From positions 1 through 64,000 of the forward strand of contig NZ_AQQX01000015.1 of NCBI RefSeq assembly GCF_000768315.1: DNA of 64,000 bases, in the 5' to 3' direction. The stretch comes from Pseudooceanicola atlanticus (GTDB lineage Bacteria > Pseudomonadota > Alphaproteobacteria > Rhodobacterales > Rhodobacteraceae). Position numbers and translations under genes: made by a program. The notes below the pieces were generated by a model. It was given only the letters and a program-made list of their open reading frames with translations, was not told the origin of the DNA and searched no databases. This document shows, one piece after another, positions 28,319 through 56,604 of this stretch. Numbering within the stretch: the first letter of the stretch is position 1; each line of letters opens with the position of its first letter.

Positions 28319-28332
28319 CTAACGCCTGTTAG
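28319..28332. promoter_or_regulatory. TetR operator-like palindrome, site 1
   Basis: CTAACGCCTGTTAG fits the consensus CTAACA-N2-TGTTAG found at five other places in the catabolic cluster. It sits 28 bases upstream of the tetR start, where it would cover the promoter. Confidence 0.8.
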
Positions 28333-28435
28333 GTTAATAACGCAAATGAGTAAATCGTCGTGATCGTGCCAGACTAGAGTTTGCGGAAAATTCCGCATTG
28401 GCGACCGCCAAGAGGCCGCCCAGACATTAATGTGC

Positions 28436-28466
28436 TTGCCCGGACCCCGTCATCGGGTCCGGGCAA
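28436..28466. terminator. Strong stem-loop downstream of the SDR gene
   Basis: A perfect 12-bp stem (TTGCCCGGACCC with GGGTCCGGGCAA) encloses a 7-base loop, 6 bases beyond the stop of the SDR gene at 28472 on the minus strand. No T-run follows, but the strength and place suggest a terminator between two leftward operons. Confidence 0.6.
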
Positions 28467-28471
28467 ATGCC

Positions 28472-29302
28472 TTAGATCACGAAACCGCCACCGCAGATGA
28501 CGTGCTGGCCTGAAATGAAGTTCGATTCCGGCGCACAGAACAGATAGACGGCACCGGCAGCTTCTTCCGGAGTGCCGACCCGGCCCAGCGGGATCATGCG
28601 CTCCATCTGGGACAGGAGATCGGGATTCACGCCGACCTTGATCTCTTTTTCCTCGACCTTGATCGTGCTGTCGCCATCCGCGCTGCCTTCGGTCAAGCGG
28701 GTGCGAATCGGGCCGAAGGCGACGGCGTTGACGTTGACCTTATAGCGGCCCCATTCCTTGGCCATCGTCCGGGTGACCCCTAGGATACCGGCCTTTGCGG
28801 CGGAATAGTTGATCTGGCCAGCATTGCCGCCGGTCCCTGCGATGGACGAGATGTTGACCACCTTGCGGAACACCTCTTGCCCGGCGGCGGCCTCTTCCTT
28901 GGCCTTGGCGCTGATCACCGGCTGGGCAGCGCGCAGGATCTTGAAAGGTGCCGTCAGGTGGACGTCGATGATCGCCTGCCACTGTTCGTCGGACATCTTC
29001 TGAACGACGCTATCCCAAGTGTAGCCTGCGTTGTTCACGATGATGTCTAACCCGCCAAAGCTGTCCACGCCGGTCTTGATGAACCGTTCGGCAAAACCGT
29101 CTTCGGTGACGCTGCCGGCACAGACCACGGCCTCAGCTCCCATTGCGCGCACCGCCTCGGCGGTTTCATTGGCCGGATCCGCATCCAGATCGTTGATCAC
29201 CAGCCGGGCCCCTTCCGAGGCCAGTTTGAGAGCGATTTCGCGGCCAATGCCCCGGCCCGAGCCCGAGACCAGCGCCACGCGCCCGTCGAGTTTTCCAGTC
29301 AT
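28472..29302 (-). CDS. Short-chain dehydrogenase, 3-hydroxyacyl-CoA dehydrogenase-like
   Basis: This 276-aa Rossmann enzyme has the cofactor motif GSGRGIG, NNAG, and the catalytic triad Ser in NISSIAG with NYSAAKAG (Tyr-x3-Lys). The early Asp (INDLDAD) favours NAD. It most likely oxidises a 3-hydroxyacyl-CoA intermediate or acts like FabG. An unusually charged insert (DGDSTIKVEEKEIKVG) precedes the C-terminal substrate loop. It lies 24 bases after the thiolase gene, so both form one operon under operator site 2. Confidence 0.85.
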   Translation of the reverse strand: MTGKLDGRVALVSGSGRGIGREIALKLASEGARLVINDLDADPANETAEAVRAMGAEAVVCAGSVTEDGFAERFIKTGVDSFGGLDIIVNNAGYTWDSVVQKMSDEQWQAIIDVHLTAPFKILRAAQPVISAKAKEEAAAGQEVFRKVVNISSIAGTGGNAGQINYSAAKAGILGVTRTMAKEWGRYKVNVNAVAFGPIRTRLTEGSADGDSTIKVEEKEIKVGVNPDLLSQMERMIPLGRVGTPEEAAGAVYLFCAPESNFISGQHVICGGGFVI

Positions 29303-29326
29303 ATTGATTCCTCCCGAAAGGCGCTA

Positions 29327-30511
29327 TCAGGCTTTTTCATAAAGCGTGGTGACGCAGGCCCCGCCGAGGCCCAGATTGTGCTGAAGCGCCAGACGTGCGC
29401 CATCAACCTGGCGCGCATCTGCCTGGCCGCGAAGCTGCTGAACGAGCTCGGTACATTGCGCTAGGCCGGTCGCCCCAAGCGGATGGCCTTTGGACAAAAG
29501 ACCGCCCGACGGGTTGGTCACGTATTTTCCGCCGTAGGTGTTGTCGCCATCATCAACGAATTTCGCCGCTTCGCCGCGACCGCAAAGGCCAAGCGCCTCA
29601 TAGGTGATAAGCTCGTTGTGGGCGAAACAGTCGTGCAGTTCGACCACATCCACGTCCTCGGGCCCGATGCCCGCGTCCTCGTAAACCTGATCGGCGGCGC
29701 GCTTGGCCATCGAAAAGCCGACCACTTCGCGCATGTCATGGGCTTCGAAAGTTTCCGGGCCGTCCGTCGTCATGGCCTGCGCCGCGATCCGAACCGAAAT
29801 GTCCAGTCCGTGCTTGTCGGCGAATTTCTTGGAACAAATGATCGCGGCGGCCGCGCCACAGGTTGGCGGACAGGCCATGAGCTTGGTCATGACGCCGGGC
29901 CAGACGACCTGGGCGGCCATGACGTCTTCCGCCGTCACCTCCTGCCGGAACAGGGCAACCGGATTCTTCGCAGCATGTCGGCTGGCCTTGGCGCGGATTT
30001 TTGCGAAGGTTTCCAGGGGGGTGCCGAACTCGTCCATATGCGCCTTGCCCGCACCGCCGAAGTACCGCAGCGCCAGCGGGATCTCGGCACTGCCAACCAG
30101 TTCGTCGGTTTCACTGTCGAATGCCGCAAACGGGCTGACCCGGTCATGGAACATCGCACCGATTGCGCCGGGCTGCATCTGTTCGAACCCAAGTGCCAGA
30201 GCACATTCGACCGCGCCGCTTTCAACTGCCTGCCTGGCCAGGAACAGGGCGGACGATCCGGTCGAGCAGTTGTTGTTCACATTCAGAACCGGGATGCCTG
30301 TCATTCCGACATGGTACAGGGCGCGCTGACCGCAGGTGCTGTCGCCATAGACATAGCCAACATAGGCCTGTTGGACTTTATCATAATCCAACCCCGCGTC
30401 TGCCAGAGCGGACCGGGTCGCAGCGGTCGCCATCACATCGTAGCTTTCGGATTTTCCCGGCTTCTGGAACGGGACCATCCCAACGCCTGCAACATAGGCT
30501 TTGTCTGTCAT
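29327..30511 (-). CDS. SCP2/SCPx-type thiolase
   Basis: This 394-aa thiolase cleaves 3-oxoacyl-CoA. The nucleophile Cys is in NVNNNCSTGSSAL (about residue 88). Further elements are ELHDCFAHNE and SGGLLSKGHPLGATGLAQ, the pattern of sterol-carrier-protein-x/lipid-transfer thiolases, which often handle branched or ring-bearing acyl chains. The ATG at 30511 has GGGAGAGAG upstream. It is divergent from paaY with two operator sites between them. Confidence 0.9.
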   Translation of the reverse strand: MTDKAYVAGVGMVPFQKPGKSESYDVMATAATRSALADAGLDYDKVQQAYVGYVYGDSTCGQRALYHVGMTGIPVLNVNNNCSTGSSALFLARQAVESGAVECALALGFEQMQPGAIGAMFHDRVSPFAAFDSETDELVGSAEIPLALRYFGGAGKAHMDEFGTPLETFAKIRAKASRHAAKNPVALFRQEVTAEDVMAAQVVWPGVMTKLMACPPTCGAAAAIICSKKFADKHGLDISVRIAAQAMTTDGPETFEAHDMREVVGFSMAKRAADQVYEDAGIGPEDVDVVELHDCFAHNELITYEALGLCGRGEAAKFVDDGDNTYGGKYVTNPSGGLLSKGHPLGATGLAQCTELVQQLRGQADARQVDGARLALQHNLGLGGACVTTLYEKA

Positions 30512-30566: not shown

Positions 30567-30580
30567 CTACCATTTGTTAG
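30567..30580. promoter_or_regulatory. TetR operator-like palindrome, site 2
   Basis: CTACCATTTGTTAG deviates from the consensus at one half-site base. It shares flanks TATTTT and ATTTT with sites 3, 4 and 6. It lies 56 bases upstream of the thiolase start. Confidence 0.75.
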
Positions 30581-30648: not shown

Positions 30649-30662
30649 CTAACTTGTGTTTG
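30649..30662. promoter_or_regulatory. TetR operator-like palindrome, site 3
   Basis: CTAACTTGTGTTTG is a degenerate copy (left half CTAAC, right half TGTTTG) with the same CTATTTT upstream flank as site 4. It lies 103 bases upstream of paaY. Confidence 0.6.
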
Positions 30663-30764: not shown

Positions 30765-31376
30765 ATGGCATACTGTTATGAGTTCAAGGGTTTTATACCC
30801 GTCGTGCCCGAGGATACATATGTCCACCCCCAGGCCGTTCTGATCGGAAATGTCATCTTGGGTCATGGATGCTACATCGGCCCCGGAGCAAGCTTGCGGG
30901 GCGATTTCGGCAGGATCGTGATCGGGGATGGAGCCAATGTTCAGGACAATTGCATCATCCATTCCTTTCCCGGCCGCGACGCCGTGGTGGAAAGCGACGG
31001 CCACATCGGCCATGGCGCGATCCTGCACGGTTGCACAGTGGGCCGGAACGCTCTGGTCGGAATGAATTCCGTCATTATGGATGGTGTAGAGCTTGGGGCG
31101 GAATCGATTGTCGGCGCGCAGGCGTTTGTGCGTGGCGAAACCGTGATTCCGCCGCGTTCGATGGTGGTGGGATCGCCGGCAAAGGTGATCCGCGAGGTCA
31201 GCGAGAAAGAAATCGCGTGGAAAACGCGCGGCACCGCGGAATACCAGCAACTTGCGCGCGACTGTCTGGCCGGATTGACGCCGGTCGAGCCGCTGAAGGC
31301 GGTCGAGGCAAACCGGCCCGGCATGGCGGCCTCTGACGTCGTCTCCATTCAGGAGGCGCGGCGGACATCGTCCTGA
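30765..31376 (+). CDS. paaY: PaaY-like hexapeptide-repeat thioesterase
   Basis: This 203-aa left-handed beta-helix protein has imperfect hexapeptide repeats (residues 15-130). It closely follows the PaaY pattern I know: [83 protein letters not shown]. PaaY hydrolyses dead-end ring CoA thioesters in phenylacetate degradation and rescues CoA. The histidines for metal binding (HGHIGHG region) are present. No other paa ring-oxidation gene lies nearby, so here it probably protects another CoA-thioester pathway. The ATG at 30765 has AAAGG upstream. Confidence 0.9.
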
Positions 31377-31487: not shown

Positions 31488-33095
31488 TTACAGACGGAAG
31501 ATCCCGTAGTGCGGATCGTCGATCGGTGCATTGAGCGAGGCAGAAATCGACATGCCAAGCGCGTTGCGTGTGTCCGCCGGATCGAGGATGCCGTCGTCCC
31601 ACAATTCCGAGGTCGAGGTATAAGCCTCGACATCGCGCTTGTATTTTTCCAGCACCGGTTCGCGGATCGCGGCGATTTCTTCTTCGGTCAGCTCTTTGCC
31701 TTCGCGCTGAAGCTGCCGAATCTTGACGTCCGCCATGGTATTTGCGGCCTGATCCGCCCCCATCACGCCGATCTCGGCCTGGGGCCACATGAACAGCGTG
31801 CGCGCGTCCCAGGCCCGTCCGCACATCCCGTAGTTGCCGGCCCCGTAAGACGCATTGGCGATCACGGTAAACTTCGGCACGACCGAGCCGCCCTGCGCCA
31901 TCAGCATCTTGGCGCCATCCTTGGCGATGCCTCGTTCTTCGTATTCGCGGCCCACCATATAGCCGGTGATGTTCTGGAAAAAGACCAGAGGCGTGCGGTT
32001 CTGGTTGCACAACTGCATGAAATGCGCTGCCTTGAGCGAACTGTCGTTGAACAGCACCCCGTTGTTGGCAAGGATGCCGACCTTGTAACCCCAGATATGG
32101 GCAAAGCCGCAAACCATCGTGGTGCCATAGTCGGGCTGGTATTCGTGAAAGCGCGAGCCATCGACGATCCGCGCCAGGACCTCGCGCATATCAAACTGGG
32201 TTTTCCGGTCCTTGGGGATGATCCCATAAAGCTCCTTGGGGTCGTAGTATGGCTCTTCAAAAGCGGCGGTTTCGATGATCGTTTTCGGGGTGCGCATCCA
32301 TTGGCTGACAATCTCGCGCGCCAGTGAAAAGGCGTGTTGTTCGGTCGCGGCGCGATAGTCGCCGGTGCCCGATACCGAGGTGTGCATGACCGCGCCGCCA
32401 AGCTCCTGAACACCGACCTCTTCGCCGGTAGCCGCCTTGACCAGCGGGGGACCGCCAAGGAAAATCGCGCCTGTGCCTTCGATGATGATGTTGTAGTCGC
32501 TCAGCGTCGGCACATAGGCACCGCCAGCCGTGCAGTGTCCGCCGACCACGGCAATCTGCGGGATATTGGCCTGGCTCAGCTTGACCTGGTTGCGGAACAC
32601 CCGCCCGCCCAGATACCGGTCGGGAAACACCCCGTGCTGCAGCGGCAGGAAACCGCCCGCGCTGTCGCAGATATGGATGACCGGCAGACGGTTTTCCAGC
32701 GCGACATCCAGAAGACGCACGACCTTTTTCACGGTATGCGGATACCAGGCACCGCCCTTGACGCTGGCATCATTGGCATGAATGGCGACCTCGCGGCCTT
32801 GCACGATGCCGATCCCCGTAACCACGCCTGCGCCGGGCACCACCCCGTCATATTCACGACAGGCCGCCAGGGTTGAAAATTCCAAAAACGGAGTGCCGGG
32901 GTCCAGCAGCAGTTTCAACCGCTCGCGCACGCCCAGTTTGTTCTGGCGGGCGAGGCGGTCGATATCGCGTTGCGGACGTTCGAAACGCGCCGCGTGCTGG
33001 CGAGCGTGGAATTCCTTCAGCCGTTCAGACATGGCGGCGAAATTTGCCTTGTAGTCGGCGGCATTGGTGTCGATCTGACTTTCAATTCTGCGCAT
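31488..33095 (-). CDS. Acyl-CoA carboxylase carboxyltransferase subunit (carboxylase 2)
   Basis: This 535-aa protein shows both carboxyltransferase halves: HANDASVKGGAWYPHTVKK, CDSAGGFLPLQ and CTAGGAYVPTLSDY; then NNGVLFNDSSLKAAHF, NITGYMVGREYEE and ASYGAGNYGMCGR. It resembles methylcrotonyl/geranyl-CoA carboxylase beta chains. The ATG at 33095 is preferred to a GTG two codons upstream, because GGAGGAG is best spaced for it. It is the last gene of an operon with an AtuA-family gene, and so may serve as the AtuC counterpart. Confidence 0.9.
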   Translation of the reverse strand: MRRIESQIDTNAADYKANFAAMSERLKEFHARQHAARFERPQRDIDRLARQNKLGVRERLKLLLDPGTPFLEFSTLAACREYDGVVPGAGVVTGIGIVQGREVAIHANDASVKGGAWYPHTVKKVVRLLDVALENRLPVIHICDSAGGFLPLQHGVFPDRYLGGRVFRNQVKLSQANIPQIAVVGGHCTAGGAYVPTLSDYNIIIEGTGAIFLGGPPLVKAATGEEVGVQELGGAVMHTSVSGTGDYRAATEQHAFSLAREIVSQWMRTPKTIIETAAFEEPYYDPKELYGIIPKDRKTQFDMREVLARIVDGSRFHEYQPDYGTTMVCGFAHIWGYKVGILANNGVLFNDSSLKAAHFMQLCNQNRTPLVFFQNITGYMVGREYEERGIAKDGAKMLMAQGGSVVPKFTVIANASYGAGNYGMCGRAWDARTLFMWPQAEIGVMGADQAANTMADVKIRQLQREGKELTEEEIAAIREPVLEKYKRDVEAYTSTSELWDDGILDPADTRNALGMSISASLNAPIDDPHYGIFRL

Positions 33096-33097
33096 GG

Positions 33098-33601
33098 TCA
33101 CTCCTCCTCCGGAGCCAATTGGGCCAGGATGTCTTTCAGACCAAAACTGTCGCCTTCGGCGAATGGCATTTCGGCAACGACCCCGTCGCGCGGCGCCGTC
33201 AGTGTGGTTTCCAACTTCATGCTTTCGATCACCAGAAGTGGCTGGCCTTCTTCAACCGCATCGCCGGGTTTAACCGCAACTGACACCACGACACCCGGCA
33301 TGGGCGCCACCAATCGGTCGTCGCTCGCGCCACCGTCGCTTCCGGCCAGGCGTTCGGCGGGATCAACCCGCCCGACTTCATAGGTTCGCCCGTCCGTGTG
33401 TACAAAAGTTGCTTCCGGCCCCACGGCCAGTCGCAATTCGCGCACAACACCCTTGGCCCGCAGCTTGTACCCGCCCGGCAGACCCGTCGGGTCCAATTGG
33501 CAGGCAACAGCGCCAGTGGGGGTGTTGAGCACGAACCGGCTGCCATCATGACCCAGCCAGCAATCAGTCTCTTCTCCGTCGATCTGAAAAATCCGTTGCA
33601 T
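33098..33601 (-). CDS. Separate biotin carboxyl carrier protein (carboxylase 2)
   Basis: This 167-aa protein has a unique N-terminal half (residues 1-90) and a biotinyl domain (95-165). Lys129 in VIESMKLE is the predicted biotin site; Ser replaces the usual Ala of EAMKM. In geranyl- and methylcrotonyl-CoA carboxylases this domain is normally fused to biotin carboxylase; here it is a separate protein. The ATG at 33601 shares a base with the biotin carboxylase stop (TGATG). The N-terminal half may correspond to the BT linker domain that binds the beta subunit. Confidence 0.9.
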   Translation of the reverse strand: MQRIFQIDGEETDCWLGHDGSRFVLNTPTGAVACQLDPTGLPGGYKLRAKGVVRELRLAVGPEATFVHTDGRTYEVGRVDPAERLAGSDGGASDDRLVAPMPGVVVSVAVKPGDAVEEGQPLLVIESMKLETTLTAPRDGVVAEMPFAEGDSFGLKDILAQLAPEEE

Positions 33602-35070
33602 CAGTTTCTCCACCCACCCATCTTGCGGTACATTTCCGGTATCTGCATTACGTCACTCACCAGGCGCTCGTCCGATAGGGCCGCCGCCGCCATCAGCAAG
33701 TCAGAGACGTCTTCGCCCGGCGCGGTTAGCGTTTCGGATTGTTCAGCCAGGAAGCCAGTTGAAACGTCACCAGAGGCGAAATCCGGATGTGCAAGGATTG
33801 CATCCAGGTAACCGGTGTTGGTCGTTACCCCGAGAATCACATAGCTTTGCACCGCGCTCCGGGCACGGGCGATGGCCTGCGCGCGATCCGGGCCATGCAC
33901 GATCAGCTTGGACAACATCGGGTCGAAGTCGGTCGTTACCTTGCCGCCATCCAGAATGCCGCTGTCTACGCGGATCCCCTCGCCCTGGGGTTCGTCCAGC
34001 AGCAGGATATTGCCGATCGCGGGGCGAAAATCGGCGGTCGCATCCTCGGCACAGATGCGCAGTTCGATCGAGTGTCCGGTTTGGGGAATATCCGCCTGCA
34101 CGGCGCTCAGCCCGTCGCCCGCCGCGACACGCAGCTGCTCGGCAACCAGATCAAAGCCGGTTACCATCTCGGTCACCGGATGTTCGACCTGAAGGCGGGT
34201 GTTCATTTCCAGGAAATAAAAGGCCCCATCCTGTGCATAGATGAATTCGACAGTCCCTGCCCCGCGGTATTTGACGGCGCGGGCAATTCCGGCAGCGGTC
34301 TCGCAGATCTCATCCCGTTGCTCGGGGGTCAGCGCCGGTGACGGCGTTTCCTCGATAATCTTCTGGAACCGGCGCTGGATCGAACATTCACGTTCCCAGA
34401 AATGGACCACGTTGCCCTGTCCGTCGCCCATCACCTGCACCTCGATATGGCGCGGGCGTTCGATATAGCGTTCGACGAAAAGCCGCCCGTCGCCGAAATA
34501 TCGTTCGCCTTCGCGGCGCGCGGTTTCGATTTCGGTCTCCAGCGTGCTGTCCTCGCGTACGACGCGCATGCCCTTGCCGCCACCGCCGGCCGAGGGCTTG
34601 ATGAGCAGCGGATAGCCAACGGCGCGGGCGCGTTCGACAAAGCTCGCCGGATCATCATCCTCGATGGCCGAGGGGGCGACGGGAAACCCGCGTTCCTCGA
34701 CGAAGGCGCGGGCGCGGACCTTGTCCCCCATCAGGTCGATGACCTCGGACGTCGGGCCGACAAAGGTCACTCCGGCTTTTTCCAGCGCCGCGACAAAACC
34801 GGCATTCTCTGACAGAAAGCCATAGCCGGGATGAACCGCGTCCGCGCCGATCCCTTTGGCGGCTTCGACGATCTGAGGAATATCGAGATAGGCGGCCACG
34901 GGCGTCGGGCCGTCGATCATCACGACCTCATCTGCGATCAGATGCGCCGGCCCCTCTTGCTCGGCGACATGACGCAACACGGCAGTCGCAAGCCCGCGGG
35001 CCTTAGCGGTGCGCAACACGCGCGCCGCGATCTCGCCCCGATTGGCGACCAGGAGTTTCGAAATGGTCAT
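33601..35070 (-). CDS. Biotin carboxylase subunit (carboxylase 2)
   Basis: This 489-aa ATP-grasp enzyme has VANRGEIAARV, HPGYGFLSENAGF, the PSAGGGGKGMR loop, EVQVMGDGQGNVVHFWERECSIQRR split over the central region, and EMNTRLQVEHPVTEM. It lacks a biotinyl domain, which is supplied by the next gene. It is 13 bases downstream of the AtuA-family gene. The catalytic residues look intact. Confidence 0.93.
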   Translation of the reverse strand: MTISKLLVANRGEIAARVLRTAKARGLATAVLRHVAEQEGPAHLIADEVVMIDGPTPVAAYLDIPQIVEAAKGIGADAVHPGYGFLSENAGFVAALEKAGVTFVGPTSEVIDLMGDKVRARAFVEERGFPVAPSAIEDDDPASFVERARAVGYPLLIKPSAGGGGKGMRVVREDSTLETEIETARREGERYFGDGRLFVERYIERPRHIEVQVMGDGQGNVVHFWERECSIQRRFQKIIEETPSPALTPEQRDEICETAAGIARAVKYRGAGTVEFIYAQDGAFYFLEMNTRLQVEHPVTEMVTGFDLVAEQLRVAAGDGLSAVQADIPQTGHSIELRICAEDATADFRPAIGNILLLDEPQGEGIRVDSGILDGGKVTTDFDPMLSKLIVHGPDRAQAIARARSAVQSYVILGVTTNTGYLDAILAHPDFASGDVSTGFLAEQSETLTAPGEDVSDLLMAAAALSDERLVSDVMQIPEMYRKMGGWRN

Positions 35071-35082
35071 GGTGTCGTCCTC

Positions 35083-36882
35083 TTAGTTCCGGGCCGCGGC
35101 ATTCAGTCCGTCACGTGCGGCCAGATCGGCTGGCACGGGAATTTCGATATCAAGCAGCATCTGCGCGAACCCTTTGCCCTGCGGGTCTATGCGGACCGAA
35201 GCGATGCCCCCCCCGCCCAGCGAGTCATGCAGCAGGAAATTCAGCGAATGGCTTCCGGGCAGGTCGAACCGTTCTACCCTGCCGTCGCAGACATGGGCGA
35301 AATAGTCCTTCACCACCTCTTCGCTGAGAGCCGAGCGGATATATGGCAGGTAGTCCGGCTTGCGCGCGAGGATGCCGATATTGGCGATGTCCCCCTTGTC
35401 GCCCGAGCGGCCCCAGGCCAGATCGACGAGGCGGACCTTGACAACGTCCGGACCGGGCTCGCGGCTATCTGCGGGCGGTGCGGCAGGCGGATCAAGGTGG
35501 ACTGGCGTGGCGGCCACGCTCACGGGCACATCCTTGCCGTCGACCTCGACCGCGACGGGGGTCTCGGCCTTGCTCTGAAGGAAGGAAAATAGACGGACCA
35601 CCGGCTGCACCTTTGGCCGTCCGGCGAAGAACCCGGTCAGACCCTGCGCGGTCGAAATCGCCATCGGTGCGATTTCGCCGGCAAAGATGTTCAGCGCGGC
35701 GCGATCGTCATGGACCGCGCCGATCTTGAGCACCACCTCGCGGGTCCGGGCGCGCGCATTTGCGCCATAGGCCGCCTCGGCCCCCAGCACCTCGACGCTG
35801 ACCTGCCGGAAATCTCCCATGTTGCGGTCGCGGAAAATCCGGCGACAGCGGGTCAGGATCGCCTCGGCCACACGTTCGGCCTTGGCGGGTGCGTCAATCG
35901 CGGCCAGTGTCAGGGTAGAGACCGCGCGCCAGCCATCGGCATGGGTCGCCGACACCTTGTAGCTGTCGGTGCGCCCAAGCCCCCGGCCGCCCTTGACCAG
36001 CACCCGGTCGGGTCCGACCTGTTCCAGGGTGACCCCGGACCAGTCGCAGATCACGTCGGGCAACAGGTAGGCGCGCGGGTCCCCGATTTCATAGAGCATC
36101 TGCTCTCCGACTGACCCGGGCACGACCAGCCCGCCGGTGTCAGGCGTCTTGGTCATGATGAAACTGCCGTCTTCGGACACCTCGACGATGGGCATGCCCA
36201 TATTGTCCCAACCCGGCACGTCCTGCCAGTCGGTGAAGTTGCCGCCGGTTCCCTGGGGGCCGCATTCGATCAGGTGGCCGGCCAGCGATCCCTGGCTGAG
36301 CTTGTCCCAGTCATCGTCGCCCCAACCGTATTCATGCATCAGGGGACCAAGCGCGACCGCGCTGTCGGCGCAGCGTCCGGTGATCACGATGTCGGCCCCG
36401 GCATCCAGCGCGGCAGCGATGGGGCGGGCACCCAGATAGGCATTCATGCTCCAGATATCATCTGGAAATGCGACACCCGAGAACATTTCCGTCTGACCGT
36501 TTTTGCGAATTTCATCGGCCCTGGGCAACAGGTCATCGCCTAGCACGACTCCGATGGACAGATCGATCCCGGCCTGGGCGGCGGCTTTGGCAAGCGCATC
36601 GCTGCAGCCACGCGGGTTCACGCCCCCTGCATTGGCAACGACCTTGATCCCTTTTGCCTTGATATCCGACAACCAGGGTGCCAGCGCCTTGACGAAGTCC
36701 GGCGCATAGCCCGACTCGGGCGCTTTGGCGCGGGCCCGCGCCATCAGCGACATTGTCACCTCTGCCAGATAGTCAAACACCAGATAGTCGATCTCGCCCT
36801 TTGAGACCAGTTGACCGATCGCTTCCGGCGTATCGCCCCAGAAGCCCGACGCGCATCCGATGCGCAGCTTTCGTTCCGACAT
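35083..36882 (-). CDS. atuA: AtuA-family protein (DUF1446)
   Basis: This 599-aa protein carries the DUF1446/AtuA pattern: RIGCASGFWGDTPEAI, FDYLAEVTMSLMARARAK, NAGGVNPRGC, ITGRCADSAVALGPLMHEYGW, and GRGLGRTDSYKVSATH. A C-terminal AtuA-like ferredoxin-fold extension begins near residue 490 (VRLVDLAWGRSGDKGDIANIG). AtuA is required for acyclic terpene use in Pseudomonas, but its reaction is not settled. Here it precedes a carboxylase, as in atu clusters. The ATG at 36882 has GGGGAGGAG upstream. Confidence 0.9.
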   Translation of the reverse strand: MSERKLRIGCASGFWGDTPEAIGQLVSKGEIDYLVFDYLAEVTMSLMARARAKAPESGYAPDFVKALAPWLSDIKAKGIKVVANAGGVNPRGCSDALAKAAAQAGIDLSIGVVLGDDLLPRADEIRKNGQTEMFSGVAFPDDIWSMNAYLGARPIAAALDAGADIVITGRCADSAVALGPLMHEYGWGDDDWDKLSQGSLAGHLIECGPQGTGGNFTDWQDVPGWDNMGMPIVEVSEDGSFIMTKTPDTGGLVVPGSVGEQMLYEIGDPRAYLLPDVICDWSGVTLEQVGPDRVLVKGGRGLGRTDSYKVSATHADGWRAVSTLTLAAIDAPAKAERVAEAILTRCRRIFRDRNMGDFRQVSVEVLGAEAAYGANARARTREVVLKIGAVHDDRAALNIFAGEIAPMAISTAQGLTGFFAGRPKVQPVVRLFSFLQSKAETPVAVEVDGKDVPVSVAATPVHLDPPAAPPADSREPGPDVVKVRLVDLAWGRSGDKGDIANIGILARKPDYLPYIRSALSEEVVKDYFAHVCDGRVERFDLPGSHSLNFLLHDSLGGGGIASVRIDPQGKGFAQMLLDIEIPVPADLAARDGLNAAARN

Positions 36883-36903
36883 ATTCCTCTCCTCCCCGTT
36901 TGA

Positions 36904-37689
36904 TCAGCGGCCCGTCCATTCGGGTTTGCGCTTCTCAATAAAGGCATCAAAGCCTTCGCGCGCGTCTTCGGTCTGCGCCACACGCGGTAACAGTGTTTCT
37001 GCAAACCGCATCTGCTGCGGATAGGTCATGTCCTCCATCGCGTGACAGGCGTATTTTCCCAGCCGGATCGCGCTCGGCGACTGCGCGGCGATCTGGGCAA
37101 CCAGTTCTGCAACCTTGTCGTCCAGCCCCGCGGCATCGGTCACATAGTTGACCAGATTGAACTGCAGGGCTTCCTCGGCCGTCAGAGGAACGCCGGTGAT
37201 GAACATCTCCATCAGCCTCCGCCGGGGCAGCACGCGCATCATGGGTGGCACGATCGTCATAGGAAACAGACCCACCTTCACTTCCGGCGTTCCGATGCGG
37301 GCATGATCCGCCATCACAGCCAGATCGCAGGCACAGATGATGCCCGCTCCTGCCCCCATCGCGACACCATTGATGCGCGCGATCGTTGGCTTTCGGCACG
37401 CCTGTATCGTCTCGAACAACCTTCCGGCAAAATGATCCGGGTCCGCCGGATCCTGAACAAACGGGCCGCCATCCGCCCCCGCCTTGATGTCGCCCCCGGC
37501 ACAGAAGGCGCGCTCGCCCTCGCCGGTCAGAACGATCACGCGGCAATCGCTGTCCCTCTCGGCAGCACATATGGCGGCCATGATCCCGTCTGCGACCTCA
37601 CGGTTGAGGGCATTTCGATTGTCAGGACGTCGAATCGTGATACGCACTTCTTTGCCGAGCGCCTGCGATTGAACAACGCTCTCAGTCAT
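36904..37689 (-). CDS. Enoyl-CoA hydratase/isomerase, AtuE-like
   Basis: This 261-aa crotonase has AFCAGGDIKAG and NGVAMGAGAGII. The first classical Glu is replaced (GAGAGI), the second is kept in IGTPEVKVGLFPMTIVPPMM. As with the hydratase at 25255, this single-Glu pattern fits hydration of a glutaconyl-type enoyl-CoA after carboxylation. It leads the leftward operon ech-atuA-BC-BCCP-CT, with operator site 4 about 79 bases upstream and GGGGGGAG as ribosome binding site. Confidence 0.85.
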   Translation of the reverse strand: MTESVVQSQALGKEVRITIRRPDNRNALNREVADGIMAAICAAERDSDCRVIVLTGEGERAFCAGGDIKAGADGGPFVQDPADPDHFAGRLFETIQACRKPTIARINGVAMGAGAGIICACDLAVMADHARIGTPEVKVGLFPMTIVPPMMRVLPRRRLMEMFITGVPLTAEEALQFNLVNYVTDAAGLDDKVAELVAQIAAQSPSAIRLGKYACHAMEDMTYPQQMRFAETLLPRVAQTEDAREGFDAFIEKRKPEWTGR

Positions 37690-37767: not shown

Positions 37768-37781
37768 CTAACATATGTTTG
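37768..37781. promoter_or_regulatory. TetR operator-like palindrome, site 4
   Basis: CTAACATATGTTTG with CTATTTT and ATTTT flanks lies between the divergent AtuE-like gene and the acyl-CoA dehydrogenase operon, 43 bases before the latter's start. One site could control both directions. Confidence 0.75.
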
Positions 37782-37823: not shown

Positions 37824-39038
37824 ATGACCACTCAAAGTGAGGCCATCTCGGCTGATCTGGAAGCCATCAGGGCGAACTATTCTTTGACTGATGAGCAACG
37901 CCAGATCGTCGATCACGTGGATCGGGTGTCGCGCGAGGTGCTACACCCACTACAAGCGCGTATGGATGACGAGGAATGGTGGCCCGATGATCTGTTCAAG
38001 CAGATGGGCGAGCTGGGCCTGCTGGGGATTACCGCACCCGAAGAGCATGGCGGATCGGGACAGAACGAGTTCACCCAGGCGCTGGTGTCCGAGGTGATTT
38101 CGAAGTGGAATCCGGCTGTGGGCCTCTCACACGGGGCGCATGACAACCTGTGCCTGAATAACCTGCTGCGCAATGGATCCGAAGAGCATGTGAAGAAATA
38201 CGTGCCGGGCCTTTGCTCGGGCGAGCTGGTTGGTGCTTTGGGCCTGACCGAACCGGGTGCGGGATCCGATGCGCTCGGATCCATGGCCACAACTGCCCGC
38301 CGCGACGGTGATGATTATGTCATCAACGGCTCGAAGATTTACATCACCAACGGCCCCATTGCCGATGTGATCCTGCTTTATGCCAAAACCGACAAGTCGA
38401 AGGGCGCCAAGGGCATTTCTGCTTTCATCATCGAGACGGACAATCCCGGTTTCAAGGTGGCGCAAAAGCTTGACAAGATGGGCTTTCGCGGCTCGCCAAC
38501 CGGAGAACTGGTGTTTGAGGATTGCCGCGTACCCGCATCCGCCATGGTTGGACCGGAAAACACCGGCGTTTCGGTGGTAATGAGCGGGTTGGATCTGGAG
38601 CGTGCTATGGTTGCCTCAGTCTGCGTTGGCATGGCCGAACGCGCCCTGGAACTAGGGCTGGAATACGCCAAGATTCGCGAACAATTCGGCAAACCGATTG
38701 CAAGTTTCCAGATGATGCAGTCGAAACTGGCCGAGATCTACACCGAGGTCGAAACCGCGCGCGCATTCGGTTATCGGGCACTGGCCGCCTGTACGGGCCT
38801 ACCAAAAGGGGCCGGGGGCCGTGGCGAAATCCACAAACTGACCGCGGCGGCCTGTCTTTACGCAGGCGAGGCATTCAACAAGGCGGTGACCGAAGCCTGT
38901 CATATTCATGGTGGCTCTGGCTACATGCAGGACACCGAGATCAACCGGCTGTTCCGCGCCAACAAATTGTTGGAGATCGGCGCGGGAACAAGCGAAGTCC
39001 GCAAGATCATCATTGCCGAAGAACTTTTGCGCGCCTGA
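37824..39038 (+). CDS. Acyl-CoA dehydrogenase, isovaleryl-type (first of a tandem pair)
   Basis: This 404-aa FAD enzyme shows LTEPGAGSDALGSM, YITNGPIADVIL, GFRGSPTGELVFEDCRVP and IHGGSGYMQDTEINR. The helix-G Glu in SGLDLERAMVAS is the base used by isovaleryl-CoA dehydrogenases. The ATG at 37824 has GGGAGGA upstream. It starts a six-gene rightward operon. It is strongly similar to the next gene across the whole length, so a duplication is likely. A branched or citronellyl-type acyl-CoA would be a reasonable substrate. Confidence 0.92.
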   Translation: MTTQSEAISADLEAIRANYSLTDEQRQIVDHVDRVSREVLHPLQARMDDEEWWPDDLFKQMGELGLLGITAPEEHGGSGQNEFTQALVSEVISKWNPAVGLSHGAHDNLCLNNLLRNGSEEHVKKYVPGLCSGELVGALGLTEPGAGSDALGSMATTARRDGDDYVINGSKIYITNGPIADVILLYAKTDKSKGAKGISAFIIETDNPGFKVAQKLDKMGFRGSPTGELVFEDCRVPASAMVGPENTGVSVVMSGLDLERAMVASVCVGMAERALELGLEYAKIREQFGKPIASFQMMQSKLAEIYTEVETARAFGYRALAACTGLPKGAGGRGEIHKLTAAACLYAGEAFNKAVTEACHIHGGSGYMQDTEINRLFRANKLLEIGAGTSEVRKIIIAEELLRA

Positions 39039-39051
39039 GGGGGACGAGACA

Positions 39052-40251: not shown

Positions 40252-40262
40252 GGGGGCGGAAC

Positions 40263-41913: not shown

Positions 41914-41925
41914 AGGAAAGATCGC

Positions 41926-45044: not shown

Positions 45045-45050
45045 AACGCT

Positions 45051-45082
45051 GGCAGCAGCGCCGGACTCAAGGCGCTGCTGCC
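45051..45082. terminator. Strong stem-loop after the BadH-like gene
   Basis: GGCAGCAGCGCC and GGCGCTGCTGCC form a perfect 12-bp stem with an 8-base loop, 6 bases after the stop at 45044. No T-run follows. Confidence 0.6.
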
Positions 45083-45111
45083 ATACCGTGCCAAGAGTTA
45101 CCTCCCCGACT

Positions 45112-45138
45112 GGCCGCGCCTTATGTGCGGCCCTTTTT
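45112..45138 (+). terminator. Intrinsic terminator just before the acyl-CoA synthetase gene
   Basis: GGCCGC-N9-GCGGCC followed by CTTTTT is a classic rho-independent terminator. It ends 19 bases before the synthetase start at 45158. It may insulate that gene from the upstream one or act as an attenuator of a longer transcript. Confidence 0.6.
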
Positions 45139-45157
45139 CATTCTAGAAAGGTTGCGA

Positions 45158-47095: not shown

Positions 47096-47946
47096 TCACT
47101 GTTTTCGGAGCCACGGGCACGACTGGTGCGCCCCTCGTCGACACGCTTCTGGCAAAAGGCGCGACCGTGCGCGCTGTCACCAGCGACCTCTCAAAGTTAG
47201 ACGCGCTAAAGGCCAAAGGATGCGAGGCGGTCGTCGCGGATTTCACCGACCCTGCCGCGCTGGCGCGGGCCTGTGACGGGGCAGAAAAGATATACCTGGT
47301 CACGCCTGCCCATCTGAACATGCGCCAGTGGAAGGCGAACGTGATCGAGGCGGCCAAGTCCGCGGGCGTGCGCCATATCGTTTTGGCCACGGGGCTTGGC
47401 GCGTCGCCCAAGGCGGGGCTGACCTTTGGCAAATGGCATTCGGAAACCCAGGAACTGCTGAAGCAAAGCGGCCTTGACTGGACCTTTGTCCAGCCGACCT
47501 ATTTCATGCAGAACCTGCTGTGGCAGGCCGGCAACATTGCAAAGGACGCCGTGTACTATGACGATCTGGGCGGCCCCGTGGCCTGGATCGACGCCCGCGA
47601 CATCGCGGATGTCGCCGCCGAGGCGCTGACCGCTCCGGGGTACGAAGGCAAGGTTCTTGGCCTGACCGGGCCCGAAGCTCTTGCAGGGGATGACATCGCG
47701 GCCCTTCTGTCCGGGGTGACGGGACGAACAGTGTCGTGCGTGTCCCTGTCGGCCGAGGATGCCAGGGCGGGCATGGTGGCCGGCGGAATGCAGGACGAGG
47801 TCGCCGGGGCCATGGTCGAACTGGCCTCTATCGCGCCCAGGGGCTACCTAGCCGGCATCGAGACCACGGTCAGCGAGGTGGTGGAGCGCCCGGCCCGCCG
47901 GTTTGCCGATTTCATCGCCGAAAACCGGAATGCTTTCGTCAAGTAA
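47092..47946 (+). CDS. NmrA-like NAD(P)-binding protein
   Basis: This 284-aa atypical SDR has the N-terminal Rossmann motif VFGATGTTG, then HIVLATGLGAS and FVQPTYFMQNLL. NmrA/azoreductase-like proteins reduce quinones or act as redox sensors. It overlaps the synthetase stop by 4 bases, so the two are co-transcribed, but no specific role in the pathway can be deduced. The gene ends just before the degenerate region. Confidence 0.82.
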   Translation: MITVFGATGTTGAPLVDTLLAKGATVRAVTSDLSKLDALKAKGCEAVVADFTDPAALARACDGAEKIYLVTPAHLNMRQWKANVIEAAKSAGVRHIVLATGLGASPKAGLTFGKWHSETQELLKQSGLDWTFVQPTYFMQNLLWQAGNIAKDAVYYDDLGGPVAWIDARDIADVAAEALTAPGYEGKVLGLTGPEALAGDDIAALLSGVTGRTVSCVSLSAEDARAGMVAGGMQDEVAGAMVELASIAPRGYLAGIETTVSEVVERPARRFADFIAENRNAFVK

Positions 47947-52971: not shown

Positions 52972-54492
52972 TTAATCTGCGAGCCGGGCTTCGAGGATAT
53001 GCCGCTGGATCTTGCCGCTGGTCGATCTGGGAAAATCCTCGAACGCGATGAAGTGAATTTCGCGTGGTCGCTTATAGCCAGCGAGGCTTTCGCGGCACAA
53101 GTTCAGCAGCGCCTCGGCATCCGGCCCGTCATCGTCACAGGCGACAAAGGCCACCGGGCTTTCCCCCCATTTCGCGTCGAAGGCCCTTACCACGGCGGCA
53201 TCGATCACATCGGGATGAGAAAGAAGCACACGTTCGATTTCCGCCGGATAGACGTTTTCACCTCCGGTCTTGATCAGGTATTTCGCCCGATCCACAAAGT
53301 CGACGGTGCCGTCCGCATTGCGCCGGAACAGATCGCCCATGTGGAAAAAGCCGTTGCGAAAGTCACGGGCATTGGTGTCGTCGGCGTTCCAGTACCCGGA
53401 AAACAGCGTCGGACCCCGAAGCGCCATTTCGCCCGGCGTTCCATCGGGGACTTCGCGGTCGTCGGGATCGACCAGCCGCACCTCGCAAAAGGCGCTGATG
53501 CGCTTGGACAGCCGGTCCGGGGTCACACCCGGCGCGATCAGATCGGCGGTTCCCGGCGGCAGGCCGGTTTCGGTCGCCCCGAAGGAATTCAGATAGGGCG
53601 TGTCCAGAAGACCGGTCAGTTCCGCGATCTGATGCGGCGGCACCAGATCAGCCATTGCGCCGCAAACCTTGATCCCCTTCAGCGGCAAAGGGTTGGCGTG
53701 CCGTTCGTTAATAAAAGCCTCCAGTGCCCCGGGCATCATCACGAACCAGCCGATCCTGTGGCGTGACAGCGCCTCGTTGATGACGGCGGGCTGCAGCCCG
53801 TCCACCATCACCACGGTCCCACCCCGCAGGATCGTTGCCAGCGCATGATCGGTGGAGGCCATGTGGAACATCGGCGCCCAGGCGATGAACCCGTCACCGG
53901 GATCCAGCGCCAGCTGGGCCGCAAAGACCATGGATCGGGCGATATGCGCGCGGTGGCTGATATGCGCCCCCTTGGGCAGGCCCGTGGTCCCCGAGGTATA
54001 GAGGATCGTCAGACCGGCCTCGGGGTCGTCAACCATGGTTCCGGTGCGCGGGTCCGGCTCGACCCCGGCAATGGCCGTTTCCAGGTCTGGCCCGACGGTT
54101 AGACAGGGTGTCGACGCGACGGCGCGGTAAGCTTCTGAAAGTTCCGGTTCGACAACCGCGAGAACCGGCTCGACCAGATCGATGCAGTGCCGCAGTTCAT
54201 CGGGGGCAAGCCGCCAGTTCAGACAGGCGACGATCGCGCCGATTCCCGCTGCTGCAAGTTCGACCTCCAGGTATTCTGAGCGGTTATGCGACAGGATCGC
54301 GATCCTGTCTCCGGGCGCCACGCCTCGTGCCAGAAAGACAGCCGCCAGACGATCGACCCGCTCCAGCAGTTCTGCATAGGTCAGTTTCCTGCTGCCGTCC
54401 TCGATGGCGAGGGCGCGGGCGCAGTCATGTGCGCGGGTTCGAAAGATCGAATACAGATCAGCGCGCCCCGCGCGGATGACGCCGGTCAGCAT
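52972..54492 (-). CDS. Acyl-CoA ligase (FadD/class I adenylating family)
   Basis: This 506-aa enzyme has the AMP-binding motif LTILYTSGTTGLPKGAHISH, then NSFGATETG, GFFHMGDLFRRNADGTVDFVDR, and a catalytic Lys in RSTSGKIQRHIL. It activates a fatty, cyclic or aromatic acid to a CoA thioester. It lies 26 bases downstream of the dienoyl-CoA reductase gene on the same strand, so it belongs to the operon controlled from site 6. It differs in type from the ligases at 45158 and 59801. Confidence 0.9.
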   Translation of the reverse strand: MLTGVIRAGRADLYSIFRTRAHDCARALAIEDGSRKLTYAELLERVDRLAAVFLARGVAPGDRIAILSHNRSEYLEVELAAAGIGAIVACLNWRLAPDELRHCIDLVEPVLAVVEPELSEAYRAVASTPCLTVGPDLETAIAGVEPDPRTGTMVDDPEAGLTILYTSGTTGLPKGAHISHRAHIARSMVFAAQLALDPGDGFIAWAPMFHMASTDHALATILRGGTVVMVDGLQPAVINEALSRHRIGWFVMMPGALEAFINERHANPLPLKGIKVCGAMADLVPPHQIAELTGLLDTPYLNSFGATETGLPPGTADLIAPGVTPDRLSKRISAFCEVRLVDPDDREVPDGTPGEMALRGPTLFSGYWNADDTNARDFRNGFFHMGDLFRRNADGTVDFVDRAKYLIKTGGENVYPAEIERVLLSHPDVIDAAVVRAFDAKWGESPVAFVACDDDGPDAEALLNLCRESLAGYKRPREIHFIAFEDFPRSTSGKIQRHILEARLAD

Positions 54493-54518
54493 AGTTTCCC
54501 CCTTGCCCGAGCCTCGGT

Positions 54519-56552
54519 TCAGAGATCCTGCGCCAGGCGCACGCCCTCATCAATGGCGCGCAGCGCATCCAGTTCGGCGGCCTCCTTTGCCCCGCCGATC
54601 ATCGTAACCAGGACGCCGCGCGCTACAACCTCTTTGGCCAGGGCCCGTTCCGGTTCCTGACCGGTGCACAGCACAATTGTATCGGCTGCGATGACCGTCG
54701 GGTTTCCGTCCGCGACGATGTGCAGCCCCGCATCGTCGATATGTTCATAGGTCACCCCGCCCATTGCCTCGACCCCATGTTTGCGCAGCGCGTTGCGCAG
54801 GATCCACCCTGTCGAAACACCAAGCCCCGCGCCCGGTTTAGCGGTCTTGCGCTGCAGCATGACGACCTTGCGGCGCGACGGCTTCGGTGCCAGAGGGTCA
54901 CCCGCCAGGGCACCCGAGGAGACAAATTCGGGGTCCACTCCCCAGGTTTCGCAAAAGACGTCGGAATTCGCGGTCTCGGCGGGTTTGGTCACTAGGAACT
55001 CGGCCACATCATGACCGATGCCCCCCGCCCCCATCACCACGACACGGTCGCCCGCCTCGCGGTCACCGGACAGAATTTCGGCGTAGGTCGCGACGCTGGG
55101 ATGGTCGATACCCGGCAGGTCGGGAATGCGCGGCGTGACCCCGGTGGCGATGACCACATGGTCAAATCCCTCAAGATCGCTCGCCTCTGCCCGCTGTCCC
55201 AGACGCTGCGTGACCCCGTGTTTCTGCATCTGACCGGCATAATACCGCAGGGTTTCGTCGAATTCGTCCTTGCCTGGTGCGGCGCGGGCCAGATTCAGCT
55301 GACCGCCCAATTTGTCCTGCGCTTCGAACAGGGTGACATCGTGGCCCAGCCGTGCCGCCTCGGCGGCTGTGGCCATGCCCGCGGCACCACCGCCAACGAC
55401 GGCCACTTTCTTTGGCGTGTCGGTTGGCGTATCCCGGAATTCCGTTTCACGCCCGGCCCTTGGATTGACCAGACATCCGACCGGCCGGTCCGAAAAAATG
55501 AAATCCAGGCAGGCCTGGTTGCAGGCAATGCAGGTGTTGATCTCGTCTGCGCGGCCCTCGCGCGTCTTTTTCACGAAATGCGGATCGGCCAGAAACGGGC
55601 GCGCCATCGAGATCATGTCCGCATCGCCAGAGGCAAGTATGTCTTCTGCAAGCTGGGGTGTGTTGATCCGGTTCGAGGCGACTACCGGGATCGACACCGC
55701 CGCTTTGACGTTGGCTGCCGCCTTGCGCCAGGCACCGCGCGGCACCGGGTAGGCGATCGTCGGCACGCGGGCCTCATGCCAGCCGATGCCGGTGTTCAGG
55801 ATATCCGCACCCGCAGCCTCGATCTTGCGGGCCAGTGCGGCAATTTCATCGGCGGGCGCGCCGCCCTCGACCAGATCGGCCGCCGAAATCCGGTAGATGA
55901 CCAGAAAGTCGGGGCCGCAACGTTCGCGCACCGCGCGCACGATCTCGACCGGGAATCGGTGGCGGTTCGCGGCGCTGCCGCCCCAGTCGTCTTGGCGCTT
56001 GTTGGTGTGGGTGACGGTGAATTCGTTGATCAGGTATCCCTCGGACCCCATGATCTCGACGCCATCAAAGCCTGCGGCCAGCGCATTGGCGGCCGCTACG
56101 GCAAAATCCTCGATGGTACGGAGAATGTCGGCTTCGGTCATTTCACGCGGGATGAAACGGTTGATCGGGGCGCGGATCGGCGACGGGGCCACACACCTTT
56201 CGATCTTGGCATAGCGCCCGGCGTGGAGGAGTTGCGCGCAGATCAGGCTGCCTTCGGCCTGCACCGCCTCGCAGATCGGGCGCAGGTCAAGCGCTTCTTC
56301 CGGGTCATCGATTCTCGGACCTTCTGGATCGAATATGCCCTCGGCATTGGGCGAAAACCCGCCGGTGACCAGAATCGCCGCCTCCCCCCGCGCACGCTCG
56401 GCGTAAAACGCGATCTGTTTGGCTATGCCGTCAGGCTCGGTTTCCAACCGCGTGTGCATCGACCCCATGATGACACGATTTCGCAATGTATGCTGGCCTG
56501 CGCGGATGGGCGAGAGCATGGTTTCAAAGCTTCCATCTGGTCTATTTTTCAC
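54519..56552 (-). CDS. fadH: 2,4-dienoyl-CoA reductase, FadH-type flavin oxidoreductase
   Basis: This 677-aa enzyme has an N-terminal OYE-type FMN barrel (residues 10-330, IMGSMHTRLE, AQLLHAGRYAK, HTNKRQDDWGG). A 4Fe-4S site follows with CIACNQACLDFIF and CLVNPRAG. The C-terminal FAD/NADPH part has VVGGGAAGMATAAEAARLGH. This is the FadH layout, which reduces 2,4-dienoyl-CoA with NADPH. The GTG at 56552 is chosen because GGAGGAGAA precedes it by about 8 bases; an ATG 11 codons later lacks such a site. It diverges from the AliB-like operon across operator site 6. Confidence 0.9.
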   Translation of the reverse strand: MKNRPDGSFETMLSPIRAGQHTLRNRVIMGSMHTRLETEPDGIAKQIAFYAERARGEAAILVTGGFSPNAEGIFDPEGPRIDDPEEALDLRPICEAVQAEGSLICAQLLHAGRYAKIERCVAPSPIRAPINRFIPREMTEADILRTIEDFAVAAANALAAGFDGVEIMGSEGYLINEFTVTHTNKRQDDWGGSAANRHRFPVEIVRAVRERCGPDFLVIYRISAADLVEGGAPADEIAALARKIEAAGADILNTGIGWHEARVPTIAYPVPRGAWRKAAANVKAAVSIPVVASNRINTPQLAEDILASGDADMISMARPFLADPHFVKKTREGRADEINTCIACNQACLDFIFSDRPVGCLVNPRAGRETEFRDTPTDTPKKVAVVGGGAAGMATAAEAARLGHDVTLFEAQDKLGGQLNLARAAPGKDEFDETLRYYAGQMQKHGVTQRLGQRAEASDLEGFDHVVIATGVTPRIPDLPGIDHPSVATYAEILSGDREAGDRVVVMGAGGIGHDVAEFLVTKPAETANSDVFCETWGVDPEFVSSGALAGDPLAPKPSRRKVVMLQRKTAKPGAGLGVSTGWILRNALRKHGVEAMGGVTYEHIDDAGLHIVADGNPTVIAADTIVLCTGQEPERALAKEVVARGVLVTMIGGAKEAAELDALRAIDEGVRLAQDL

Positions 56553-56590
56553 TTTGGTTCTCCTCCTCAAAACTGCACTTGATCTACATT

Positions 56591-56604
56591 CTAACATTTG
56601 TTAG
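56591..56604. promoter_or_regulatory. TetR operator-like palindrome, site 6
   Basis: CTAACATTTGTTAG has perfect half-sites and reads as the exact reverse complement of site 5. It lies between the fadH and AliB-like genes, 38 and 41 bases from their starts. It is 12 kb away from the other sites, beyond the decayed region. Confidence 0.85.

What the first reader, a model, noticed from the sequence alone, without database searches (positions are those of the whole stretch)
28319..56604. A six-site palindromic regulon unites two catabolic blocks
Six copies of a 14-bp palindrome close to CTAACA-N2-TGTTAG lie at 28319, 30567, 30649, 37768, 44202 and 56591. They sit only in promoter regions: before the single tetR, before the thiolase, before paaY, and in three divergent promoters. 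Flanks (TATTTT and ATTTT) are also shared. Two copies (44202, 56591) have perfect half-sites. The copies control genes on both sides of a 5-kb decayed region, so both blocks appear to be one regulon run by paralogous TetR proteins. The link between site and protein is inference.
Basis: partly seen in the sequence, partly recalled or inferred. Interest (0 to 1): 0.8.

Follow-up and report, generated by a model that had tools for sequence, protein, structure and literature searches.

The report
Double-TetR repressor and its catabolic regulon
A marine bacterium's island of genes for breaking down ring-shaped or branched acids carries the same short mirror-image DNA switch at many promoters, and the likely reader of that switch is an unusual repressor made of two fused TetR units, so the set is probably one regulon.

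Summary
All six palindromes are where stated and are intergenic. In the 4.94-Mb genome the nine copies with at most one mismatch lie only on two contigs: six on the window's contig (five in the window) and three on a second. In Mesorhizobium both blocks lie together in one 80-kb stretch, with sites at matching promoters despite some reordering.

The interpretation (one regulon run by TetR paralogs) is well supported by comparison, with a correction: the second "TetR" is one 466-aa protein with two complete TetR units. A palindrome lies just upstream in 78 of 80 named relatives. In 295 family genomes the exact palindrome occurs 45 times in the 9 with the double TetR and 13 times in the other 286. 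The two halves are sister clades, suggesting one internal duplication.

Best reading: a single-chain TetR pseudodimer, with its single-unit paralog, represses a CoA-thioester catabolic island by blocking promoters. Binding, repression and ligand are untested. The closest known protein, Mce3R, is also a double TetR but binds a nonpalindromic site. The "decayed region" looks instead like a variable stretch with an insertion sequence.

The parts
28319..28332 (.). Operator S1, CTAACGCCTGTTAG, 27 bp upstream of the single tetR
   Evidence: a site at the matching place in G204, G161, G189, Labrenzia G302 and Mesorhizobium G296
30567..30580 (.). Operator S2, CTACCATTTGTTAG, upstream of thiolase-SDR operon
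   Evidence: TTGACA-18-TAAAAT promoter-like pair next to it
30649..30662 (.). Operator S3 (weak, 2 mismatches), upstream of paaY-like gene
   Evidence: also in the near-identical G204 and G161; a pair of sites 81 bp apart lies before the thiolase gene in Labrenzia G302; no second site at up to 2 mismatches in G189 or G296
37768..37781 (.). Operator S4, CTAACATATGTTTG, divergent promoter of enoyl-CoA hydratase and acyl-CoA dehydrogenase operons
   Evidence: a site of at most 1 mismatch lies 6270-6490 bp from the double-tetR start in 60 of 72 named loci that reach that far
44202..44215 (.). Operator S5, CTAACAAATGTTAG, divergent promoter of double tetR and badH-like gene
56591..56604 (.). Operator S6, CTAACATTTGTTAG, divergent promoter of OYE-ligase and aliB-like operons
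42791..44191 (-). Double TetR fusion protein, 466 aa (P0003), probable regulator; start codon chosen by me
   Evidence: two TetR_N and two TetR_C_24 stretches in the longer frame P0001 that contains it; AF2 pTM 0.80; near full-length fold match to Mce3R
27662..28291 (-). Single TetR, 209 aa (P0002), paralog of both halves
22092..27657 (-). Operon after S1: carboxyltransferase, enoyl-CoA hydratase, biotin carboxylase, acyl-CoA dehydrogenase
21477..22043 (-). BioY biotin transporter, possible last gene of the S1 operon
   Evidence: beside the same genes in G204, G161 and G296, not matched in G189
28472..30511 (-). Thiolase/lipid-transfer protein and SDR after S2
30765..31376 (+). PaaY-like hexapeptide protein after S3 (below the family cut-off)
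31488..37689 (-). Operon after S4: enoyl-CoA hydratase, 599-aa protein, biotin carboxylase, BCCP, carboxyltransferase
37824..42809 (+). Operon after S4: two acyl-CoA dehydrogenases, SDR, enoyl-CoA hydratase, two hotdog thioesterases
44283..47946 (+). BadH-like dehydrogenase, acyl-CoA synthetase, NmrA-like protein after S5
   Evidence: start codon read
52972..56519 (-). OYE-type reductase and acyl-CoA ligase after S6
56646..62796 (+). AliB-like dehydrogenase operon after S6, continuing past the window

Best explanation
The palindromes are operators of a TetR-family repressor system controlling one catabolic island for alicyclic or branched carboxylic acids activated as CoA thioesters. The main reader is a 466-aa protein with two complete TetR units in one chain, made by an ancient internal duplication. 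Its two near-identical recognition helices would each read one CTAACA half-site, so a single chain acts like a normal TetR dimer on a symmetric site. A single-unit paralog, whose own gene also has the operator, probably reads the same sites. Bound protein would block RNA polymerase, because operators seem to lie between or next to the -35 and -10 elements; an acyl-CoA intermediate of the pathway would release it. Shown by computation: the sites, their clustering, their tie to the double TetR, the fusion and its likely origin. Inferred: binding, intramolecular reading, repression, ligand.
For: All 9 genome copies with at most 1 mismatch are on C4 and C7, all intergenic. Best upstream palindrome in 80 named double-TetR loci: 0 mismatches in 47, 1 in 25, 2 in 6, more in 2. 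In 33 of those loci the half-sites carry about 1.3-2 bits per base, against 0.1-0.85 over the 16 bases from -20 to -5. Exact sites: 45 in 9 double-TetR genomes, 13 in 286 others. Sites kept at matching promoters in Mesorhizobium (partly reordered; double TetR 58% identical) and Labrenzia (66%). Two HTH motifs in one frame in 77 of 80. N and C halves each one clade and sisters, 99/99. Recognition helices EAGSIYYHF/KAGSVYYHF, identical in both halves of L136. Fold match to Mce3R over 429 columns. TTGA[C/T] at -10 to -13 or -24 to -30 of the site in 10 of 16 gene-facing orientations, from 10 sites on C7 and C4.
Against: No binding or expression data. Double and single TetR co-occur in 8 of the 9 double-TetR genomes, so which one reads which site is unresolved. 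G031 has a single relative, no double TetR, and a 1-mismatch palindrome near that gene, so the site is not peculiar to the double TetR. The island is 93-100% identical between the window and G204, so conservation there is not independent. At up to 1 mismatch, counts in 10 distant genomes (80 sites) hardly exceed the reversed control (64), and clustering is clear in only some of them. The Acidocella gene (L134) lacks a nearby site. A TTGATTC stretch (-27 to -21) beyond the operator is also conserved, and the downstream flank abuts the start codon. The promoter registers were chosen after seeing the data.
Confidence: 0.8

Rival explanations
1. The single TetR (27662-28291) is the true reader as a homodimer, and the double TetR has another target or only modulates it.
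For: The single TetR has recognition helix KAGSIYYHF and an operator before its own gene; orthologs accompany 8 of 9 double-TetR genomes; G031, with a single relative only, has a 1-mismatch palindrome near that gene.
Against: The palindrome sits directly before the double-TetR gene in 78 of 80 loci; the two genomes with a single relative (48-54% identity) but no double TetR, G031 and the 62%-complete G212, have no exact site; G061 has a double TetR, no single ortholog at E<=1e-45, and one exact site.
Confidence: 0.12
2. The double TetR does not read one palindrome with its two halves; two chains pair N-with-N and C-with-C, giving two symmetric readers, an alternative the Mce3R paper considered for Mce3R.
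For: Both halves keep complete DNA-binding and C-terminal domains; the Mce3R paper raises this alternative.
Against: The AF2 single-chain model (pTM 0.80) matches the Mce3R single-chain fold over nearly its full length; I saw one operator type before the gene. The model was predicted as a single chain, so it cannot exclude pairing.
Confidence: 0.2
3. The palindromes are sites of an unrelated regulator, or are structural or repeat elements spread with the island.
For: In 8 other genomes the exact sequence CTAACATATGTTAG lies, judged by eye, in a longer, different inverted repeat, so the sequence alone is not specific.
Against: Flanks and centres differ between copies, sites keep to promoters after rearrangement, and copies track the double TetR.
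Confidence: 0.05

Closest known systems
Mce3R of Mycobacterium tuberculosis (PDB 9b7y; PMC11667970: abstract, outline, sections 15, 20 and 25, and found passages seen)
   Same: Two TetR units in one chain; top fold match (TM 0.61/0.71, 16% identity); reported to be autoregulated and to control lipid and sterol-related genes.
   Different: Reported to bind 25-bp asymmetric, nonpalindromic sites, with halves resembling distinct TetR subgroups; here the apparent operator is a 14-bp palindrome and the halves are sister clades.
PaaR (TTHA0973) of Thermus thermophilus (PMC6651687, passages seen)
   Same: 14-bp pseudopalindrome CNAACGNNCGTTNG reported for its promoters, of which CTAACA-N2-TGTTAG is a close variant; homodimeric TetR; phenylacetyl-CoA effector according to a reference title quoted there.
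   Different: Single TetR unit; phenylacetate genes; no direct sequence comparison made here.
Engineered single-chain Tet repressors (PMC1797012, search listing only)
   Same: One chain with two TetR domains acting on tet operators (beyond the listing, recalled).
   Different: Man-made; the protein here is natural and found in many genomes.

Membership tests
TetR family | TetR_N DNA-binding domain plus helical C-terminal domain | tested here: met
   Pfam above cut-off for P0002 and, twice, for P0001, the longer frame that contains P0003
Double-TetR repressors (Mce3R kind) | Two complete TetR units in one open frame | tested here: met
   two HTH motifs in one frame in 77 of 80 relatives, the rest being L110 and L116 (one motif found) and L125 (cut by contig end)
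Double-TetR repressors (Mce3R kind) | Single-chain fold like Mce3R | tested here: met
   Foldseek rank 1, E 8.9e-10, 429 columns, rmsd 6.8, on a predicted single-chain model
Double-TetR repressors (Mce3R kind) | Nonpalindromic operator | tested here: not met
   Conserved 14-bp palindrome before the gene; binding itself untested
Double-TetR repressors (Mce3R kind) | Halves from distinct TetR subgroups | tested here: not met
   N and C halves sister clades, 99/99, against the 16 single proteins sampled from one family search
PaaR-type regulators | CNAACGNNCGTTNG-type operator | tested here: inconclusive
   Core CTAAC/GTTAG fits; sixth base is mostly A instead of G
PaaR-type regulators | Phenylacetyl-CoA as effector | not testable with these tools
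   needs binding assays

The most novel reading that the evidence does not exclude
A natural single-chain TetR pseudodimer in which a self-duplication freed the two ligand pockets to diverge (36-50% identity outside the DNA-binding domain in the 12 proteins compared) while both recognition helices stayed tuned to the same half-site, so that one protein reads one palindrome yet could sense two different acyl-CoA intermediates, and shares its operators with a conventional single-unit paralog.
Probability: 0.3. Interest if true: 0.68.

Novelty: new variant of a known kind. Interest (0 to 1): 0.52.

Why it matters
The 2024 Mce3R paper calls its structure the first of a double-TetR repressor, and that protein reads an asymmetric site. 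Here is a double-TetR family found in many alphaproteobacterial genomes with a sharply defined symmetric operator and a co-existing single paralog. It would let one test directly how covalent fusion changes symmetry, ligand sensing and competition in a very large repressor family. It also marks a mobile, apparently coordinately controlled catabolic island whose substrate is unknown.

Tried and rejected
Considered and rejected: (1) chance clustering: rejected by permuted half-site controls and the whole-genome count. (2) A regulon split over two replicons: in G204 both blocks lie on one 3.1-Mb contig within about 137 kb, and in Mesorhizobium they are adjacent. (3) A 5-kb decayed region: not supported. 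(4) The 412-aa gene call for the second TetR: my predictor cut it short; its frame runs on to a 466-aa fusion. (5) Exact sites in genomes without the double TetR as regulon members: 8 of those 12 genomes show a different inverted repeat, 4 do not (for G077, which has two sites, I looked at one).

Led nowhere: paper searches for tandem or fused TetR were noisy; a search for Roseobacter TetR regulons gave no paper; searches on cyclohexane carboxylate with TetR or Rhodobacteraceae listed nothing on this island that I could see. No paper on a double TetR in alphaproteobacteria appeared in the listings, which cover open-licence papers only and show at most 25 rows each. The substrate was not identified: the AliB-, BadH- and PaaY-like proteins score below their family cut-offs, and I did not look for a ring hydrolase.

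Limits: 32 double-TetR sequences went into the structure alignment, 29 of them from the 80 named loci; 23 of the 80 went into the tree, with 16 single proteins, near-copies L037, L040 and L041 left out; 33 of 80 into the footprint. The scan of named genomes kept the best 80 of 226 relatives. A first check of the 80 frames flagged seven; a looser motif check left three. My second gene call shows an antisense frame at 57908-59632 in place of the two genes named.
Full report
Observation. The six palindromes are present at the stated coordinates with 1, 1, 2, 1, 0 and 0 mismatches to CTAACA-N2-TGTTAG. At a loose threshold (up to 3 mismatches) the window shows 11 matches against 5.5 expected, reached by 2 of 100 shuffles, and genome-wide at up to 2 mismatches the reversed-pattern control is commoner (59) than the palindrome (23). 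At up to one mismatch the picture changes. The whole genome (4.94 Mb, 47 contigs) has nine such copies: five in the window, one more on the same contig C7 (69559), and three on contig C4 (67051, 70712, 86926); none elsewhere. On C4+C7 together, the other 59 orderings of the same half-site letters give at most 2 copies, and 959 other half-sites of the same G+C give at most 3. All nine, the weak site at 30649 and two weak C4 sites (21282, 26004) are intergenic by my gene calls.

Genes. S1 (28319) precedes a single tetR followed by a carboxyltransferase, enoyl-CoA hydratase, biotin carboxylase and acyl-CoA dehydrogenase, with a BioY biotin transporter at the end. S2 and S3 lie between a thiolase-SDR pair and a PaaY-like gene. 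S4 (37768) is the divergent promoter of a second carboxylase operon and an acyl-CoA dehydrogenase operon. S5 (44202) separates the second regulator from a BadH-like dehydrogenase with an acyl-CoA synthetase; S6 (56591) separates an OYE-type reductase from an AliB-like dehydrogenase operon, which continues outside the window with a third carboxylase set and an HMG-CoA lyase. The seventh site on C7 precedes an ABC-transporter ATPase gene followed by an AMP-binding enzyme. The C4 sites adjoin genes for a transglutaminase-like protein, acyl-CoA dehydrogenases, a MaoC-type hydratase, a thiolase, a ChsH2-like protein, CoA-transferases, an SDR and another ABC transporter. This looks like degradation of an alicyclic or branched carboxylic acid as CoA thioesters. 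The substrate is inference; the AliB-, BadH- and PaaY-like assignments score below their curated cut-offs.

The regulator. The frame read as one tetR at 42791-44191 encodes 466 residues from the start codon I chose; the longer frame that contains it has two TetR_N and two TetR_C_24 stretches. S5 lies 10 bases upstream of that start. Its halves are 40% and 35% identical to the single TetR (E=5e-39 and 9.9e-37); the next best protein in the genome has E=4e-12. Recognition helices are EAGSIYYHF and KAGSVYYHF, with KAGSIYYHF in the single TetR; in L136 both halves are identical over these nine residues. Across 12 double proteins the halves share 54-62% of the DNA-binding domain and 36-50% of the rest. 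A tree of 23 N halves, 23 C halves and 16 single proteins puts each group in one clade, with N and C as sisters (99/99), so one internal duplication is the simplest origin. The single proteins were those found by the double-protein search, and the tool warns of long branches, which limits this claim. The AlphaFold model (pTM 0.80, pLDDT 82) has Mce3R as its top match in the PDB, over 429 columns.

Site and regulator. In 295 genomes of the family, 9 carry the double TetR full length (G246 has two). They hold 5, 6, 1, 5, 5, 5, 7, 5 and 6 exact sites, 45 in all; the other 286 genomes hold 13, in 12 genomes; the reversed-pattern control is zero in all nine. Eight of those 12 genomes carry CTAACATATGTTAG inside what looks by eye like a different, longer inverted repeat. 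A scan of named genomes returned the best 80 of 226 loci, mostly genera of the Rhodobacter-Roseobacter group, with some Rhizobiales, Acidocella and one Marinobacter. Within 250 bases upstream to 80 bases inside the matched start, the best palindrome has 0 mismatches in 47, 1 in 25, 2 in 6 and more in 2. The two exceptions are L125, cut by its contig end, and L134 from Acidocella. In 33 of these loci the half-sites and their AT flanks stand out from the 16 bases from -20 to -5; the central two bases vary, and mismatches fall in both halves. A TTGATTC stretch at -27 to -21 is conserved too (a possible -35 element), and the downstream flank abuts the start codon, so its conservation is ambiguous.

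Independence. Island proteins are 93-100% identical between the window's genome (C7 21480-80675, the two transposase frames aside, and C4 61551-89363) and G204, the genome of Shimia biformata by its contig length and position, which suggests recent transfer, so conservation there counts little. The better replicates are Mesorhizobium sediminum (G296) and Labrenzia (G302). In the 80 kb read from G296 the C4 and C7 blocks are adjacent, with 10 sites of at most two mismatches (4 exact, 4 with one, 2 with two); the ABC-transporter operon (C7 69728-77389) is inverted and moved, yet still has a site at its promoter. In G302 five sites of one mismatch match S1-S5 in order, before the same genes, but no PaaY-like gene was matched there or in the G296 stretch. 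Against this, genome-wide counts at up to one mismatch in ten distant genomes total 80 against 64 for the reversed control. What stands out is clustering on the double-TetR contig: 8 of 8 in G296, 8 of 9 in G295, 6 of 7 in G297, 8 of 10 in G304; but 4 of 8 in G301, 5 of 12 in G302, 2 of 6 in G300, 2 of 5 in Acidocella G298, scattered over six contigs in G303, and incompletely listed for G299.

Mechanism. For ten sites on C7 and C4 (the nine of up to one mismatch, and 30649) I looked at 16 orientations that face a called gene start within 400 bases; in 10 of them TTGA[C/T] lies 10-13 or 24-30 bases upstream of the site (11 occurrences, none elsewhere within 45 bases); the clearest is TTGACA-18-TAAAAT before the thiolase operon. 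These registers were recognised afterwards and are suggestive. The operator would then cover the -10 region or the start of transcription, as for a blocking repressor. Release by an acyl-CoA is inferred from the pathway and from related TetR proteins. Two genomes with a distant single relative but no double TetR (G031, and G212, 62% complete) have no exact site, although G031 has a one-mismatch palindrome near that gene; G061, with a double TetR and no single ortholog at E<=1e-45, has one exact site. This favours the double TetR as main reader but rests on three genomes.

Comparison. Mce3R is the known double TetR; its paper reports 25-bp nonpalindromic operators and says its halves belong to distinct subgroups. 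PaaR of Thermus has a reported 14-bp site CNAACGNNCGTTNG, of which the present operator is a variant. The combination found here, a self-duplicated double TetR with a palindromic PaaR-like operator, did not appear in the listings. I therefore call it a new variant of a known kind.

Noticed in passing
window 52018-52775: IS4/5-type transposase split over two frames, with no match above 50% among genes called in the stretches fetched from G204, G161 and G189: probably an insertion between the two blocks.
   Followed up: partly
window 21477-22043: BioY biotin transporter at the end of the S1 operon, in an island with three sets of biotin-dependent carboxylase genes.
   Followed up: partly
L045, L046, L047, L048, L057, L058, L059, L062 around position 1501: Judged by eye, a different, longer inverted repeat containing CTAACATATGTTAG; in L045, L058 and L059 an adjacent frame looks like another TetR N-terminus.
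   Followed up: partly
G246:C81 (L036): One genome holds a second, 53%-identical double TetR with a one-mismatch palindrome upstream and an exact site elsewhere on that contig.
   Followed up: no
L125: A record named Marinobacter aromaticivorans carries a 76%-identical part of the double TetR at a contig edge, suggesting transfer beyond the alphaproteobacteria, or contamination.
   Followed up: no
C4:21282 and C4:26004 (L003): Two weaker intergenic sites (2 mismatches) beside genes that I did not scan; two neighbours are 79% and 59% relatives of the G204 counterparts of C4 86992-89363.
   Followed up: no
window 35083-36882: 599-aa protein inside the carboxylase operon with no NCBIfam match at 1e-10, 85-100% identical in G204, G161, G189, G302 and G296.
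   Followed up: no
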